Origin: Natrinema mahii
GTDB taxonomy: Archaea > Halobacteriota > Halobacteria > Halobacteriales > Natrialbaceae
DNA length: 64,000 nucleotides
Direction of reading: 5' to 3'
Assembly: GCA_000690595.2 (NCBI GenBank)
Contig: JHUT02000003.1
Coordinates: forward strand, 1 to 64,000
In this document: piece by piece, positions 5,429 through 16,061 of the stretch
Layout: each line of letters opens with the position of its first letter
How positions within the stretch are numbered: position 1 is the first letter of the stretch
Notes under the pieces: model-generated
Told to the model about the DNA's origin: nothing
What the model saw: only the letters and a program-made list of their open reading frames with translations
Database searches by the model: none
Translations under genes and position numbers: made by a program

Positions 5429-6610
5429 TCACTGCTCCGAGAGTGGGGGCAACCACCACGTCAGCGCGATCGCGACCAGGACCAGCCCTGCCAGCCCGAG
5501 ATACGCCTCGTCGAAGTAGCCCCGGTCCGCGAACGCGCCGAACGCGATCGGGCTGATCGCGCCGATCGTCATGTAGACGGTCCGTAAGAATCCGAGGCCG
5601 GTCCCCTGCATGTCAGATGGGAACGCCGCGGTCATGTACGGCAGGGTGATGGTGCCGTAGCCCAGAATGCTCGAGAGGAAGACCGTCCCGACGACGAGCG
5701 GCCAAAAGCCCTCGAGGACGGGCAGTGCGACGAGCGAGACCACGACGACACCCAGGACCGGCGGCAGCGATTTCCGGATGCCGAACCGGTCGTACAGCCG
5801 GCCGGTCAGTGGCTGGACGACGATCCCGGCCGCGAAGAAGGCGCTGAAGAGCCCGGTTGCGACGCTCTCCGAGAACCCCTTGATCTCGATCAGATAGGTG
5901 GGGTAAAACCCCGTAAAAGCCTGCCAGACGCAGTAGGTCAGGATCTGGATTGCGGTCACGGTGACGATCTCGGGGCGGCGCAGTTCCGAGCGGACGTACC
6001 GGACCGTCTCGAGCGAGACGCTGTCGACGGCGCTCCCCGCGCTCGAGGTGCGCGCGGGGACGGCGAGTCTGAGCCCGATCGCGACGGCGGCGAAGGCGGG
6101 AACGGCGAGGCCGAAGCCGTACTGCCAGGCGTAGGCCGAAGCGATCGCGCCCGCGGCGAGGGGGAGGAGCGTGTTGCCGGCCTGTCCGGCGGCCATCGTC
6201 ACGCCGATCGCGGTGCCGTCGTTGTCGGGATAGACGTCCGACAGCGTCGTAAAACGGGCGACGCCGTACAGCGCCGTTCCGAACCCGAACGCGGCCGTCG
6301 CGACGTACACCACGGGCGCGGAGCCGGCGACCGCGACGAGACCGATCGTCACCGCGGAGATCACCGTGCTCGCGACGAGGACGTTCCCCTCGCCGAACCG
6401 GTCGGCGAGCAGTCCACCCGGGAGCTGTCCGAGCGCGTAACAGAGCCAGAGCGCGGTCAGCAGGAATCCGGCTGTCGTCAGATCGAGGCCGTAGGCCCGT
6501 CGGAGATACGGGAGCAAGACCGGATAGGCGAGCCTGACGCCGATCGAGAGGAACCAGCCGGCGGCGACCGCGATCAGGATTTTGGCACGACTATCTGCCA
6601 GGAGAATCAT
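5429..6610 (-). CDS. MFS family transporter
   Basis: The 393-residue protein has 12 predicted transmembrane helices in two halves separated by a loop near residues 185-205. Typical major facilitator motifs are visible: LLADRFGEG in loop 2-3 and LTGRLYDRFGIRKS in loop 8-9. The substrate cannot be read from sequence. Haloarchaeal members of this type are often annotated as nitrate/nitrite-like or general anion and organic acid transporters. The gene is convergent with tspO. A TATA-like gataaacc lies about 30 nt upstream of the start on the minus strand. Confidence 0.88.
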   Translation of the reverse strand: MILLADSRAKILIAVAAGWFLSIGVRLAYPVLLPYLRRAYGLDLTTAGFLLTALWLCYALGQLPGGLLADRFGEGNVLVASTVISAVTIGLVAVAGSAPVVYVATAAFGFGTALYGVARFTTLSDVYPDNDGTAIGVTMAAGQAGNTLLPLAAGAIASAYAWQYGFGLAVPAFAAVAIGLRLAVPARTSSAGSAVDSVSLETVRYVRSELRRPEIVTVTAIQILTYCVWQAFTGFYPTYLIEIKGFSESVATGLFSAFFAAGIVVQPLTGRLYDRFGIRKSLPPVLGVVVVSLVALPVLEGFWPLVVGTVFLSSILGYGTITLPYMTAAFPSDMQGTGLGFLRTVYMTIGAISPIAFGAFADRGYFDEAYLGLAGLVLVAIALTWWLPPLSEQ

Positions 6611-6717
6611 ACAGACGAGTACCCCTACCCAACAGCAATTGGTTTATCATCTTTCATATATCGGATTGTGAGTGCTCTATCCGGTGTATTTCGCCGAGAC
6701 TGATGGTACGACTCTAT

Positions 6718-6802
6718 CTATAATAACTACTGAAAGTCAGCGCACTCCTCATCGCCTGATAGCGTTGGATCAGTGTGTAAATCGTTTTAGTGGCTACTAT
6801 AA
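6718..6802. repeat. 85-bp palindromic element, copy 1
   Basis: This 85-bp stretch aligns without gaps to the reverse complement of 13602-13686. By hand count 58 of 85 positions match. The ends form imperfect inverted repeats (ctata.ta.ct at the left, ag...ctactataa at the right). It lies about 150 bp downstream of the secreted-protein gene at 6950-7651. It could be a diverged MITE-like element or a structured RNA or terminator. I see no open frame inside it worth calling. Confidence 0.6.
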
Positions 6803-6949
6803 TTGTGACTGGCCGTTAGCCCACTACCAATGGGGAGAATCACCTATCAGAACATAGACACTATTTCCATATACAATCCCTGCGATACAAATAAAGCGAG
6901 TCAGAACACCGGTACCTGCTGAATCAATTATGGCGGTTTCTACCGAGAG

Positions 6950-7651
6950 TTACTGTGGACTGACACTCACCCAGTCTGGTCCTGGATTAGGGGTTGGCAG
7001 TTGGTATACTTTAATCACTACACCGTGCCCTTTGTTTTTGTGACCCAGTTCAAGTGCTCCAAGCTGGAGAGCCGCCGTAATTGCAGCACCAATAACGGAT
7101 GGTATCGTTCCTGCTCCCGATGCAGCGGCGAGAGCAGTAATAAACCCGGATCCGATCGCTCCCTGTTGTATCCGGTATTCTAACTCCTGTGTATTCTCAT
7201 CATCAACGTGGAAGACATGTGTTACATACGGTCGGGTAAAACCAGGCCCGCGTACTTTGTAATTATTTTTCCCGTGACTGAACGGTTGAACAACGCCTTC
7301 CGCAGTACCGAATTCTGATTTGGCCGTAGATGTGAGTTCAATATAGACCATTCCCTCTTTTTCTACGAGCTCGATCTTCCCTTTCTGTTGTTCCTCATTT
7401 AGTGATTTCGCAAACTCCTCGAGGCTGAATTCGTCATCTGACGATCCATGAGTGGATGCTACTGCAGCCGTTGATGCATCTTCGACTTTGATATCTCCAT
7501 CTTTGAGTGTGAAAGGATCCGTTTCAACTCTGCTTTCATCTCTACTTTCTTTTCCCGCAGTGAGGGACGGAACGGTTGCAAGAGTGAGGATTCCAACTCC
7601 TGTCCGCATAACATTTCGTCGGTTTTGTTTGGGTTGGTTATCTCTACCCAT
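6950..7651 (-). CDS. Secreted hypothetical protein with Gly/Ala-rich hydrophobic C-terminus (halocin-like candidate)
   Basis: The 233-residue protein starts with a Tat-like signal (two arginines at 11-12, hydrophobic run to about 33). Residues 35-160 form an acidic, soluble region. Residues 164-202 form a Gly/Ala-rich hydrophobic segment (GAIGSGFITALAAASG...), followed by NKGHGVVIKVY at 206-216 and a Pro-rich tail. A leader, a charged middle and a Gly/Ala hydrophobic core suit a secreted membrane-active peptide such as a halocin or bacteriocin precursor, but no family match is certain. GC is clearly lower than in neighbouring genes, which suggests transfer. A TATA-like tataacatataag about 25 nt upstream supports this start as leaderless. 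Confidence 0.65.
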   Translation of the reverse strand: MGRDNQPKQNRRNVMRTGVGILTLATVPSLTAGKESRDESRVETDPFTLKDGDIKVEDASTAAVASTHGSSDDEFSLEEFAKSLNEEQQKGKIELVEKEGMVYIELTSTAKSEFGTAEGVVQPFSHGKNNYKVRGPGFTRPYVTHVFHVDDENTQELEYRIQQGAIGSGFITALAAASGAGTIPSVIGAAITAALQLGALELGHKNKGHGVVIKVYQLPTPNPGPDWVSVSPQ

Positions 7652-7755
7652 AGGAAATCATTACTGGTTCTTATATGTTATACTTACTGAATTAAATAGA
7701 ATAGAAATAACGGGGAAACCGCAATATATTTATTCTAATGAAGTTAGTTATACCC
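7652..7755. promoter_or_regulatory. AT-rich divergent promoter
   Basis: The region separates two divergent genes and is very AT-rich. A TATA-like aatatatttatt at 7721-7732 lies about 27 nt before the ATG at 7756. A second, oppositely oriented, lies near 7665-7680, about 25 nt before the start at 7651. Shared control of the two genes is likely but not shown. Confidence 0.55.
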
Positions 7756-7929
7756 ATGACTGATAAACTTGATGTGGCTCTATTGGGTCTATTAGTGATT
7801 ATCTGGCTCGGGGCGCTGGCACAATCTCTTAACCCCTCGAGCCATCGAATCGAGCGTCTAGCATGGTTCATGCTGGGCGGAACGACTCTTGGATTGGTGT
7901 TTCTCGGAGTACACATAATAAAACAGTAG
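7756..7929 (+). CDS. Small two-helix membrane protein
   Basis: This 57-residue protein consists of two hydrophobic helices (LLGLLVIIWLGALA and WFMLGGTTLGLVFLGVHII) joined by a short basic loop. The ATG at 7756 is preferred over 7738 because the TATA-like element at 7721-7732 then sits at leaderless spacing. It is divergent from the halocin-like secreted protein and shares its AT-rich promoter, so an immunity or export role is conceivable. That is inference from position only, and I recognise no family. Confidence 0.55.
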   Translation: MTDKLDVALLGLLVIIWLGALAQSLNPSSHRIERLAWFMLGGTTLGLVFLGVHIIKQ

Positions 7930-8037
7930 CTCCTTTCAGAGTGGTGAAGTCAGAATCCTATTCGGACTGACCAGCTCCACTTATCCGTCTTGATCGTTCG
8001 CGGTGTCGATCCTGCAGACGTGCTGTGGAACGGATTT

Positions 8038-8622
8038 TTAGAACGGGACGAACTCGAGCGCCAGATAGGCCAGACAGGCGGCGTAGATCGGGATCGTCAG
8101 GTTGTCGTCGATGATGTAGGTCCGGATCTCGAGGGTGACGCCGTCGGCCAGCGTCGCGCCCACCGCGGCGATCAGCGCCGCGGTGATCGGCAGGAACGGA
8201 ATCGCGATGAGCGTCGAGACGAGAAACATCGTGCCGAGCACCTTCGGCGGCTTGACCCGCTTGAGGGTGTTGTCCGAGACCGTACCGCTGATCGGGTCCC
8301 CCAGCGCGAGCATCAACATCGCGGGCAGCGCGATATCCGGCTCGAAGACGACCACGACCGCCGCCATGCTGATCAGGTAGAGCGCGTAGGCGGCGGGGTT
8401 GTCCTGTTCGTACTCGCGGGTGAGAACATCGTAGAGCCGCCAGTCCAGTCCCACCCGGAGCCGCAGGAACTCGAGGACGAGCGCGCCGACCGCCAGCACG
8501 ATCATGAGGAGCCGGAACCCGGTCCAGGTCAGCCCCACTGCGAGGGCGTCGGCCAGCAGCCAGAGGGCGACCAGTCCCGAGCCGCTGGCGTGAACCAGCC
8601 GGCGCTTCAGTTCGTCGGCCAT
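8038..8622 (-). CDS. Dolichol/polyprenol kinase-like membrane enzyme
   Basis: The 194-residue integral membrane protein has six or seven hydrophobic segments. It shows the dolichol kinase / CTP-dependent lipid kinase pattern, with LVHASGSG near the N-terminus, LMLALGDPISGTVSDN in the middle and ALIAAVGATLADGVTL later. Family members phosphorylate polyprenols or diacylglycerol-type lipids with CTP. The ATG at 8622 is chosen over a GTG one codon upstream. A strong TATA-like tatatactatataa at 8680-8693 gives a short leader. Confidence 0.8.
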   Translation of the reverse strand: MADELKRRLVHASGSGLVALWLLADALAVGLTWTGFRLLMIVLAVGALVLEFLRLRVGLDWRLYDVLTREYEQDNPAAYALYLISMAAVVVVFEPDIALPAMLMLALGDPISGTVSDNTLKRVKPPKVLGTMFLVSTLIAIPFLPITAALIAAVGATLADGVTLEIRTYIIDDNLTIPIYAACLAYLALEFVPF

Positions 8623-8769
8623 CACGTCGTGCCTCGGGAGAGGTGACCTTCAGTCCGTCGGTTAGTTCTCCGGAGGTCTATATACTATATAAATGACGGC
8701 GGGTCGGTTTCCGTGCCGAACTTACGGCCGGAGCCGCGACGGGTGCCCGGCGGGACCCGTCGGTCGACG

Positions 8770-12897: not shown

Positions 12898-13144
12898 ACA
12901 CGAGTAAATAGCTACGGCCGACTCATAAGTATTATTGCGATGATCGACCGTGTTGGATGATCGTCTCTCACACTATCAGTCCATGACTGTCACGGGATCG
13001 AAACGCCGTCAACGAGTTCGAGGGGCCAGTCTATCGCGGCTATCAGACACGCAAACGCCGGTTCGCGTGATCGATGAGAACGATGGTTACGTTGTGAAAG
13101 ATGAACGAAAAATTATTTTTTGCTACAATAAAATCAATCATTTA

Positions 13145-13414
13145 ATGGGGCCTGTTGCTGTCCTCGGTCTGACGATCGTGTACGTATCGATACACGTGTT
13201 TCTGTCAATTCTCGTATTGAAAGACGCAGAGAAACGTGGAATCGAAAATTCGGTGACGTGGGCCACAATTGTTGTTGTCTTCTCTGGGGTTGGACTCGTT
13301 GCCTACCTCATCAGACGGACTATGCCCGAAAGTGAAGCCGAGGATCCTGAAGATGCGGAGTTTCTACTCCCCGAAACAGAGCATTCCGATGACTCATCAC
13401 ACGCAGACGAGTGA
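13145..13414 (+). CDS. PLDc_N-like two-helix membrane protein
   Basis: The 89-residue protein has two membrane helices around the motif LKDAEKRGIENSVTWATIVV, with GLVAYLIRR at the end of helix 2. This matches the phospholipase D N-terminal (PLDc_N) mini-domain found as stand-alone proteins in haloarchaea. The C-terminal 30 residues are acidic. A longer frame opens at 12950, but the ATG at 13145 is preferred: an AT-rich TATA-like stretch (13108-13120) lies about 25-30 nt upstream and the domain starts there. It sits at the edge of an AT-rich patch. Confidence 0.65.
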   Translation: MGPVAVLGLTIVYVSIHVFLSILVLKDAEKRGIENSVTWATIVVVFSGVGLVAYLIRRTMPESEAEDPEDAEFLLPETEHSDDSSHADE

Positions 13415-13601
13415 CCGAGTTATTTTATTGAACCATTCGCTATGTTGGTTCCCTGTACTGATCACTCACTACTCATTCCAGACCGGTCCTTGATCAGTGT
13501 CACATTCGTGCGTTGTATTCACATGGCTGCTGGAACCCATCTCCGATTGAAGGTTTCAACAGGGCTGAAAAATTCTATTGAGTGGGTATCTCGCAGTGGT
13601 G

Positions 13602-13686
13602 CTATAGTAACTCTTGAAACGAGATACACACCAATCGTAACGTGTCCTGCGATCGGGTGTGCATTGACTTTCAAGAGCTACTATAG
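13602..13686. repeat. 85-bp palindromic element, copy 2
   Basis: Near-perfect 18-bp terminal inverted repeats (ctatagtaactcttgaaa at 13602-13619, tttcaagagctactatag at 13669-13686, one mismatch) enclose a further imperfect stem (cacacc...gggtgtg). The reverse complement aligns gap-free to 6718-6802. The element lies 47 bp downstream of the lipoprotein gene at 13733-14203. A MITE-like element or structured RNA is possible. Confidence 0.7.
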
Positions 13687-13732
13687 GTTCATTCACCGTA
13701 GTGTTTATCCTGACTTTGGTGCGAGAATCATT

Positions 13733-14203
13733 CTATTCCGGCGAGGAAGTTATCCGCTCACCCTCGTTACTAGAGTTGGTGTAGTACGTGTTTTGATTTA
13801 CTGGGACTGACGTCCACGGTTTGGAACTCCCATTCCAAAACATTTCTGAACGTTCTATATCTCCGTAATTTACTTCGATTCCAGACATAAACGCCATACT
13901 AACTGTTGGCGACGGATAGTCGCTACGCAAATGCACTTTACCCCGAGTCAACTGGTCCAAATCCGGCGTATCGATTTCCCAGCGAAGCGGGACAGTATAT
14001 GCCTCATCTTCAGTCGGCTTCGAAAAGTCGAGAATAGCCACAAGCTGATCCGCGGCAACTTGATATGCCTGAACGGATTTGATACTCGGTCTTGGCTCTT
14101 TATCATCTTCACGAAATTGGCACCCTGCTAACCCAATTCCAATCCCTACTCCACCAGTCGTAAGAATGCTCCGCCGAGAAACACAATTTTTTGGCTCTCT
14201 CAT
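13733..14203 (-). CDS. Tat lipoprotein of unknown function
   Basis: The 156-residue protein begins with REPKNCVSRRSILTTGG, a twin-arginine signal ending in the lipobox LAGC, so it should be a lipid-anchored exported protein. The rest is a small beta-rich domain with a VAILDFSKPTEDEAYTVPLRW segment. The frame extends 20 codons upstream, but the ATG at 14203 places the twin arginine correctly. GC is low compared with housekeeping neighbours, which suggests transfer. No family is recognised. Confidence 0.65.
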   Translation of the reverse strand: MREPKNCVSRRSILTTGGVGIGIGLAGCQFREDDKEPRPSIKSVQAYQVAADQLVAILDFSKPTEDEAYTVPLRWEIDTPDLDQLTRGKVHLRSDYPSPTVSMAFMSGIEVNYGDIERSEMFWNGSSKPWTSVPVNQNTYYTNSSNEGERITSSPE

Positions 14204-14500
14204 TTTACCCCTTTCGCTACTAATTTTTCTACTAAAGAGATAAGTATAACGCTCTGGTTGCATTTTGTGGTATCAGGCATAGCTAAAGTAGAATCCGAGT
14301 TCATGTTGGTGGCAGAATGTAGATTGGTTTTGAGCCTTGAAAGTAAGTCTCTAGGTAAATTAGGTTGGATATTGAGTTCTAACTCACTTGATATCTGGAT
14401 TCACTCTACAAAACCCAACCAATCTTATTAACACAATTATTAAAATAAGCGATTTCAGCTACTGAATATGTGTGATATGCCTGTCTATTTATATCCTTGA

Positions 14501-15394
14501 CTAATCTTCACCTCCAATTTCCGGAACATAAATAGTATAGTCAAGCGTCTTGTTATACTGATCAGTGGGTTCACGATTTCCAGTCCAGTCAGTGGCTGGT
14601 CTATATAGAGCATTGTTAAGGGTCTGGGTTACGGATACATCAATAGTATCTGAACCCAGTTCATTAGCAGGTGGGAATATGTGCGAATATTCAATATAAT
14701 GGCCTAATACAGATTGGCCACGGTTGTGTGCATGCCATTCTCTATTGATGTCAGAACCAATCGTAGACTGTTTATAATTTGAATAAATCTGCATGGCGGT
14801 GTATAGACTGGATATACCTTCGCCAAAACTTGAATAAAGGAGAACCGCTCCTTCAGCAATTGCATCGGTCTCCGAAGGCGAATCATTGTTTTCGGACCTC
14901 CCAAGCACGGAAACTCCCCAATCAGTGTCATCGTGGGCTACTGTTGATACTTTATTAGAATGCTCAGTATCTACGTTTATTTCACTCCATGACCGGAAAA
15001 GATCCTCGGTTCCTGTAGTGCCATCATCTAGTTCGTAACCAGTCGCGGCACATGCCGTTGCGGACATATGAACAGAATACTTTTCGGCCCCCTCATCCCA
15101 TTGAAGCCCATTAGACAGTTGGCGAAATTGGCAGCCTGCGGTTGTATAACTTGTTCCACTACCAGCCGGAAATTCAGAATTTGCCGATCGTTCAATTGAA
15201 TTCCAACCTCTGTTAGCGGAAATATTATCCTCACTACCACATATCCCTTGTGGACAAGTATACCTTTCAGTACCAATATCTGGGTCTGCCGCTGTAGTGT
15301 TTGAAAAAAGAGGTATTCCAATTACCGTGCCACTCACAGTCCCTACTTTCTTTAAGGCAGTGCGTCTCATACTATCAATATTCTCGTCTTTCAT
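14501..15394 (-). CDS. Secreted hypothetical protein
   Basis: The 297-residue protein has an N-terminal SMRRTALKKVG region and a hydrophobic stretch ending TTAAD, a likely Tat signal without lipobox. The exported part is rich in Ser, Thr, Asn and acidic residues and contains cysteines (CPQGICG, GCQF, ACAATG) that may form disulfides. Low GC and many A/T-ending codons set it apart from surrounding genes. I recognise no family; a surface or secreted role is inferred from the signal. Confidence 0.65.
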   Translation of the reverse strand: MKDENIDSMRRTALKKVGTVSGTVIGIPLFSNTTAADPDIGTERYTCPQGICGSEDNISANRGWNSIERSANSEFPAGSGTSYTTAGCQFRQLSNGLQWDEGAEKYSVHMSATACAATGYELDDGTTGTEDLFRSWSEINVDTEHSNKVSTVAHDDTDWGVSVLGRSENNDSPSETDAIAEGAVLLYSSFGEGISSLYTAMQIYSNYKQSTIGSDINREWHAHNRGQSVLGHYIEYSHIFPPANELGSDTIDVSVTQTLNNALYRPATDWTGNREPTDQYNKTLDYTIYVPEIGGED

Positions 15395-16061
15395 TTCTAA
15401 ATATTACTTAACCATTGCTATGTTTATACCTTTCGCCACTCATGATTGGTTGTATTTATACTTTAAAAATAATATTAATAATAGGTTATCAGCTTCGATG
15501 ATTATGATAGCATCTGATTGATAACAACCATTAAACACAGCACGTCCTGCAGGTCCGCATATCGAAAAAGTCCCGCAGACTTCGCACCTGTCCGATCGTA
15601 GTTCGTTGTTGAGTAGTCACAAGAGGGTAGTCGTGAGCGGCCTGCCTCCCCGTCGAATACTTCGATGTACGTCCGGTAATCTGACAGGTGATTGAGGACC
15701 CACGGTGACAGTCGAGTCGCTTGCCCGGGTACAGGAAAATTGAGTTCAGTTGATTGGTCATCTCGACACCCTTCGGTCGACAGACGCTCGTACTCCGACG
15801 GATCGCCCGCCAGGAGATCGTTGGGACGCTCCGGTCAGCCGTACCGGTGGCCGTACTCCATGTCCATCGTTCTAGGTGGCCGTCGTGGTCGCTTGCCGTG
15901 ACCGTGTACAGTGGTCTCTCGTCGGATTTGTTGGCCGTGTTACTGTGCAGCCCTCGTAACATGCCGTTTCGCAGCAGCACGAACGCGTCGGCCTGTACTT
16001 ATCGTTCGAAGGGTCGTCATGGCAAGTGACTGCGACCGTCCTCTGACACGTTCAGCACTTG
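15395..16061. other. Intergenic region with no convincing gene
   Basis: The first 140 bp are very AT-rich and contain the promoter of the minus-strand secreted protein gene. The remainder is GC-rich, with only frames of poor protein character (for example 15531-15980 minus). I see no RNA gene or transposase remnant that I can support. Confidence 0.4.

What the first reader, a model, noticed from the sequence alone, without database searches (positions are those of the whole stretch)
6950..7929. Halocin-like secreted protein with a divergent two-helix membrane protein
The 233-residue Tat-exported protein ends in a Gly/Ala hydrophobic segment and a NKGHGVVIKVY-type tail, reminiscent of pore-forming peptide precursors. 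A 57-residue two-helix membrane protein is encoded divergently from a shared AT-rich promoter, the usual layout for a toxin and its immunity factor. No family assignment is certain, so a previously undescribed antimicrobial locus is possible.
Basis: inference. Interest (0 to 1): 0.6.

Follow-up and report, generated by a model that had tools for sequence, protein, structure and literature searches.

The report
Haloarchaeal secreted toxin-like precursor with immunity-like partner
A salt-loving archaeon carries, in a small DNA island missing from its sister species, a gene for an exported antimicrobial-like protein next to a gene for a tiny membrane protein that probably protects the producer; the pair belongs to a widespread, unnamed family whose killing activity has not yet been tested.

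Summary
The precursor belongs to a real but unnamed haloarchaeal family: core domain in 31 of 392 Halobacteriales genomes, no Pfam, NCBIfam, PHROG or PADLOC family. Architecture: Tat signal, variable proregion, ~108-aa core with a hydrophobic hairpin between two clasp positions (Cys/Cys in most, His/His here), C-terminal [SP]Q. Small 2-4-helix membrane ORFs adjoin 18 of 27 loci against 0 of 47 other genes; one subfamily has a 6-helix partner instead. Where the precursor is broken, the membrane ORF stays intact. Some relatives split the gene exactly between proregion and core (TAATG overlap), both halves conserved; one has the core directly after the signal. Best reading: a secreted, proteolytically matured, membrane-acting archaeocin with a membrane immunity protein (about 0.75). 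Activity, target, processing and clasp chemistry are untested. Sequence membership in geobacillin-26 was tested and not met; halocin H4 could not be tested; halocin C8 is contradicted by the lack of cysteines. A new family of a known kind of weapon.

The parts
6604..8037 (.). AT-rich island (about 45% GC against about 66% around it) holding both genes
   Evidence: all 28 other same-genus genomes matched the query but none in the island's genes; flanking MFS gene (5429-6610) and CTP-transferase-like gene (8038-8625) lie about 150-250 bp apart in the 12 junctions read
6950..7651 (-). precursor gene, 233 aa: Tat signal, proregion, core
7553..7651 (-). Tat signal peptide (RRNVMRTGVGILTLATVPSLTAG)
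   Evidence: sequence; twin Arg column conserved in all full-length relatives
7280..7552 (-). proregion (residues about 34-124) with the family motif DG...LN-x5-G
   Evidence: encoded as a separate ORF in split relatives; absent in L043
6953..7279 (-). core domain (residues about 125-233)
   Evidence: free-standing ORF in L143, L144 and L145
7274..7276 (-). first clasp position, His126 (Cys in most relatives)
7037..7192 (-). hydrophobic hairpin, residues about 154-205
   Evidence: sequence; AF2 helices 154-177 and 184-205 at low confidence
7025..7027 (-). second clasp position, His209 in NKGHGV (Cys in most relatives)
6953..6958 (-). C-terminal Pro-Gln, the family's [SP]Q end
   Evidence: Gln in 23 of 24 members
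7756..7929 (+). two-helix membrane protein, 57 aa, candidate immunity protein (alternative start 7738, 63 aa)
   Evidence: TATA-like spacing
7652..7755 (.). shared divergent promoter region; TATA-like 7725-7734 (for the small gene) and 7672-7677 (for the precursor)
   Evidence: sequence; inference

Best explanation
It is a toxin-immunity locus of a new family of haloarchaeal antimicrobial proteins (archaeocins). The precursor is exported by the Tat pathway. A cut between proregion and core (just upstream of residue 125/126) releases a core of about 108 aa. The core's two-helix hydrophobic hairpin, closed at its base by a residue pair (disulphide in most relatives, His/His here), inserts into and disrupts the membrane of competing haloarchaea. 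The small divergent two-helix protein sits in the producer's membrane and blocks the core there. Shown: the architecture, the family, the association with small membrane proteins, the survival of those proteins beside broken precursors, the split between proregion and core, and the island. Inferred: export, cleavage, membrane action, the immunity role and the chemistry of the clasp.
For: Family: 31 of 392 Halobacteriales genomes carry the core, in 21 of 95 genera, patchily. Island absent in same-genus genomes. Partner: a 2-4-helix ORF of 45-140 aa within 450 bp in 18 of 27 loci against 0 of 47 control genes, the single control hit being this locus's own small gene; the subfamily ending in HCDC has a 6-helix partner of about 300 aa instead. 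Orphan pattern: frameshifted or truncated precursors in the own genome (C5, C10) and in G335:C2, G319, G295 and G014 keep an intact membrane ORF. Core as a module: split genes with a TAATG overlap at the proregion/core border in three genomes, plus a decayed fourth; synonymous sites are saturated (pS 0.74-0.75) between L143 and L145 while both ORFs stay open (pN 0.42 and 0.33). L043 has the core directly after the Tat signal. Clasp: of 27 aligned cores, the second position is His exactly when the first is (3 of 3, no mixed Cys/His pair). Parallel: Alicyclobacillus geobacillin-26-type bacteriocins, one of them (Ali24) shown to be antibacterial (PMC13176240), also have a 54-56-aa two-helix ORF just downstream. 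Halocins H4 and C8 are reported to be activated by release of a C-terminal fragment (PMC12893001).
Against: No experiment. No family model or solved structure matches significantly. Structure prediction failed (pLDDT 36 and 42), so the hairpin and clasp geometry rest on sequence alone. Several loci (G154, G169, G128) have a membrane ORF only 0.8-1.6 kb away, or a doubtful one. In the split form the core has no signal peptide of its own, so its export would need co-transport with the proregion, which is unproven. The control set for adjacency is one window.
Confidence: 0.75

Rival explanations
1. The precursor is a Tat-exported surface protein held in the producer's own membrane by its hydrophobic hairpin; the small membrane protein is an accessory for its assembly or anchoring, and no toxin is involved.
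For: Hydrophobic C-terminal segments often anchor haloarchaeal surface proteins (general knowledge). No activity data.
Against: The hydrophobic stretch is followed by a conserved motif and a 20-30-aa polar tail. Core-only and split versions exist. Partners differ in type (2, 4 or 6 helices) and outlive broken precursors. Occurrence is patchy and island-borne.
Confidence: 0.12
2. Secreted peptide signal: the core is a processed pheromone or a signal for DNA uptake or mating, and the small membrane protein is its sensor or exporter.
For: Processed secreted peptide next to a membrane protein. Halocin H4 has been linked to DNA uptake (PMC6759562).
Against: The partner is a bare 57-aa hairpin with no sensor or transporter domain. 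Partners of three sizes and intact partners beside broken precursors fit immunity better.
Confidence: 0.06
3. The precursor is the antimicrobial, but the divergent 57-aa protein is not its immunity protein; protection comes from the proregion, as reported for HalI of halocin C8, and the membrane ORF does something else, such as helping release.
For: HalC8 precedent of immunity inside the precursor (PMC11509114). In split loci the proregion is a separate gene, a layout that would also suit a neutralising partner.
Against: L043 has a core without any proregion but still has a two-helix neighbour. Membrane ORFs survive where the precursor is broken.
Confidence: 0.15

Closest known systems
Geobacillin-26 family (NF035925; Geo26, alicyclobacillin 24)
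   Same: Secreted proteins of about 240 aa with a variable N-terminal part and a C-terminal Ala/Gly hydrophobic segment; a small two-helix ORF directly downstream in both Alicyclobacillus loci examined
   Different: Sec signal instead of Tat; no sequence match above chance (NF035925 best 17.7 bits in 26 positive genomes, and not on the family's own locus there; cut-off 40); profile-profile probability 1.8%
Halocin H4
   Same: Haloarchaeal secreted precursor reported to be activated by an extracellular serine protease that releases an antimicrobial C-terminal fragment (PMC12893001)
   Different: Homology could not be tested, as no copy of the halH4 gene was found in the collections; the published reverse primer (PMC12893001) implies an end in ...TTE, not [SP]Q
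Halocin C8 / HalI
   Same: Tat-exported precursor of similar size with a C-terminal mature peptide released from an N-terminal part (PMC11509114)
   Different: HalC8 is cysteine-rich (own knowledge) while this core has no cysteine; HalC8 immunity is in the same precursor, here a separate membrane protein is the candidate
Circular bacteriocins (plantacyclin B21AG, enterocin NKR-5-3B)
   Same: Compact Ala/Gly-rich membrane-active helical proteins; two of the six best solved-structure hits of the core profile (E 0.07 and 0.87)
   Different: Not significant; shared composition may explain it; no sign of head-to-tail cyclisation; Tat export and a different precursor

Membership tests
Geobacillin-26 family (NF035925) | Score above the curated cut-off of 40 bits | tested here: not met
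   none of 26 positive genomes over the cut-off; weak hits also occur in unrelated control genomes; members at best E 0.055
Geobacillin-26 family (NF035925) | Profile similarity to Ali24-type sequences | tested here: not met
   probability 1.8%; only two Geo26 sequences in that alignment, so sensitivity is limited
Geobacillin-26 family (NF035925) | Sec signal peptide and C-terminal hydrophobic helix (PMC13176240) | tested here: not met
   Twin-arginine signal instead of Sec; the hydrophobic segment is present
Halocin C8 family | Tat-exported precursor releasing a C-terminal peptide | tested here: inconclusive
   Tat motif present; the proregion/core border is supported by split and core-only relatives; cleavage itself not observed
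Halocin C8 family | Cysteine-rich mature peptide of 76 aa | tested here: not met
   Core of about 108 aa without cysteine; most relatives have two core cysteines. The Cys-rich nature of HalC8 is own knowledge, its 76 aa from PMC11509114
Halocin H4 | Sequence homology to HalH4 | not testable with these tools
   halH4 not found in the held plasmids or genomes
Halocin H4 | Activation by a halolysin | not testable with these tools
   Needs a cleavage assay
Circular bacteriocins | Significant profile or structure match | tested here: inconclusive
   E 0.07 and 0.87; AF2 models too poor to compare
Toxin-immunity locus (functional kind) | Secreted effector gene consistently next to a small membrane-protein gene | tested here: met
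   18 of 27 loci against 0 of 47 controls; more partners
Toxin-immunity locus (functional kind) | Growth inhibition by the effector and protection by the partner | not testable with these tools
   Needs expression and halo assays

The most novel reading that the evidence does not exclude
A new archaeocin family in which the membrane-active core is a mobile module: fused behind a proregion, placed directly behind a Tat signal, or made as a separate, signal-less polypeptide whose export must piggyback on the Tat-targeted proregion. The core's hairpin is closed by an interchangeable clasp, disulphide in most members and a His/His pair (possibly metal-binding) here.
Probability: 0.35. Interest if true: 0.75.

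Novelty: new variant of a known kind. Interest (0 to 1): 0.55.

Why it matters
Halocin production is called nearly universal in haloarchaea, yet few halocin genes are known, and none of the known ones could be linked to this family here. The family is present in about 8% of sampled Halobacteriales genomes, is annotated only as hypothetical protein in the one RefSeq copy seen, and comes with a candidate immunity gene, so the producer/immunity question can be tested directly with two small genes. The split genes mark the proregion/core border and pose a clear question about Tat co-export. The Cys/Cys to His/His exchange points to two residues that probably touch.

Tried and rejected
Pfam, NCBIfam, PHROGs and PADLOC scans of the protein, of family members or of the core: no curated hit. 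PDB sequence searches: nothing significant; the hemagglutinin hits are helical-composition noise. TrpP and DUF6861 hits: weak, rejected. Geobacillin-26 membership: tested because of sub-threshold hits, rejected. Viral contigs: no relatives. First genome-contig scan: none; the second gave three named relatives, Natronorubrum, Natronobiforma and Natrarchaeobius. AlphaFold2 with the four sequences allowed: pLDDT 36 (whole) and 42 (core), so no fold search was made. Most of the 124 genomes in the first profile search hit only the Tat signal; the count used here is from the core-only profile. Halocin H4 could not be fetched. I considered the split genes to be frameshift pseudogenes; rejected for L143-L145 because both ORFs stay open at saturated synonymous divergence with the same TAATG junction, accepted for G335:C2 and the L002 copy. 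The key genomic survey of archaeal toxins by Makarova et al. (mBio 2019) is not held, so I cannot exclude that this family appears in its candidate lists.

Full report
What is there. The minus-strand ORF 6950-7651 encodes 233 aa beginning MGRDNQPKQNRRNVMRTGVGILTLATVPSLTAG, a twin-arginine signal, and ending NKGHGVVIKVYQLPTPNPGPDWVSVSPQ. The plus-strand ORF starts at 7738 (63 aa) or 7756 (57 aa). A TATA-like box at 7725-7734 fits a leaderless start at 7756 (inference). Both lie in a stretch of about 45% GC in a 66% GC neighbourhood.

The island. The query 5429-8625 was matched in all 29 genomes of the genus. The flanking MFS gene and CTP-transferase-like gene are found in the sister genomes, and nothing matches the two island genes in them; the only island bases with matches are a dispersed repeat at 6710-6820. 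The 12 junctions that I read put the two flanking genes about 150-250 bp apart; window bases 6604-8037 stand in place of that spacer. The locus is therefore recently gained, or kept in this genome only.

The family. A single-sequence search found matches in 14 of 392 genomes including the own one (best other E 6e-31). Their alignment shows a Tat signal, a proregion with an almost invariant Asn (LNEEQQKG here), and a core that starts at [C/H]-G-x-N and ends in [SP]Q. A profile of the core alone finds it in 31 of 392 genomes, 21 of 95 genera. A plasmid copy in Natrinema sp. SYSU A 869 is annotated as hypothetical protein.

The partner. Using the same rule for all loci (ORF of 45-140 aa, at least two hydrophobic segments, within 450 bp, not shadowed by a longer ORF), 18 of 27 loci have such a neighbour (17 of 26 haloarchaeal, plus Ali24). 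Of 48 control genes in the window one scored, and its neighbour is this locus's own small gene, so 0 of 47. The subfamily ending in HCDC has a 6-helix protein of about 300 aa beside it. Orientation varies (divergent, upstream, downstream), as expected if proximity is what is selected.

Orphan partners. In the own genome a second precursor is frameshifted (C5) and a third is truncated to about its last 67 residues (C10), yet both keep an intact membrane ORF. The same holds for G335:C2, G319, G295 and G014. Keeping the partner after the effector decays is typical of immunity genes (general knowledge).

The core as a module. In L143 (own genome, C3), L144 and L145 the precursor is two ORFs overlapping by TAATG: signal plus proregion ending ...GDE, then a 105-110-aa core starting M-x-C-N. 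L143 and L145 are saturated at synonymous sites (pS 0.74 and 0.75) while pN is 0.42 and 0.33, so both ORFs have been under selection. A fourth case, L146, has an in-frame stop early in the core. L043 has the core right after the signal peptide. These layouts place the border of the active module near residue 125 of the window protein. The signal-less core of the split form must leave the cell in some way; co-export with the proregion is my inference.

The clasp. Of 27 aligned cores, 18 have Cys at both clasp positions, 3 have His at both (window, L011, L043), 2 have neither, and 4 keep the first Cys and have another Cys at D[DH]C in place of the second. No Cys/His mixture occurs. If the three His at the second position fell at random among 27, they would match the first with probability 1 in 2925; relatedness is not corrected for, but on a weakly resolved tree the three His/His rows lie apart, the window beside Cys/Cys rows and L011 beside a row with neither. 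The two positions probably touch. Whether His/His binds a metal is unknown.

What it is not shown to be. Curated libraries give nothing. Geobacillin-26 membership was tested and not met, although that bacterial family shows the same layout, including a 54-56-aa two-helix ORF downstream in both Alicyclobacillus loci; the paper on Ali24 does not use the word immunity. The core has no cysteine, unlike halocin C8. Halocin H4 could not be compared. AlphaFold models were too poor to use.

Conclusion. It is a new family of a known kind, with a modular core and a variable clasp as its distinctive features.

Noticed in passing
window 6710-6820: A dispersed repeat of about 85 bp (82-88% identity) with imperfect inverted ends (TATAATAACTACTGAAA / TATAGTAGCCACTAAAA), present in many copies in the own genome and in other genomes of the genus; MITE-like.
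   Followed up: partly
window 12900-15600: A second AT-rich stretch (GC 0.39-0.48) with a Tat-signal lipoprotein-like ORF (13733-14263, minus) and a 297-aa Tat-signal ORF (14501-15394, minus) of unknown family.
   Followed up: no
L067 20951-21139 (minus), Alicyclobacillus acidoterrestris plasmid NZ_CP080468: An unannotated two-helix ORF (56 or 62 aa by start codon) directly downstream of the bacteriocin alicyclobacillin 24; a relative (54 aa, hypothetical protein) follows the homologous gene in A. fastidiosus (L115 2272-2436). Possible immunity proteins of the geobacillin-26 family.
   Followed up: partly
own genome G000: C3:181315-181973, C5:100559-101182, C10:53962-54138: Three further family loci in the same genome: one split into two ORFs, one frameshifted, one truncated, each with a membrane ORF nearby.
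   Followed up: yes
L012 (G128:C1): Family member broken by a frameshift at a run of A after the signal peptide; whether real or an assembly error is unknown.
   Followed up: no
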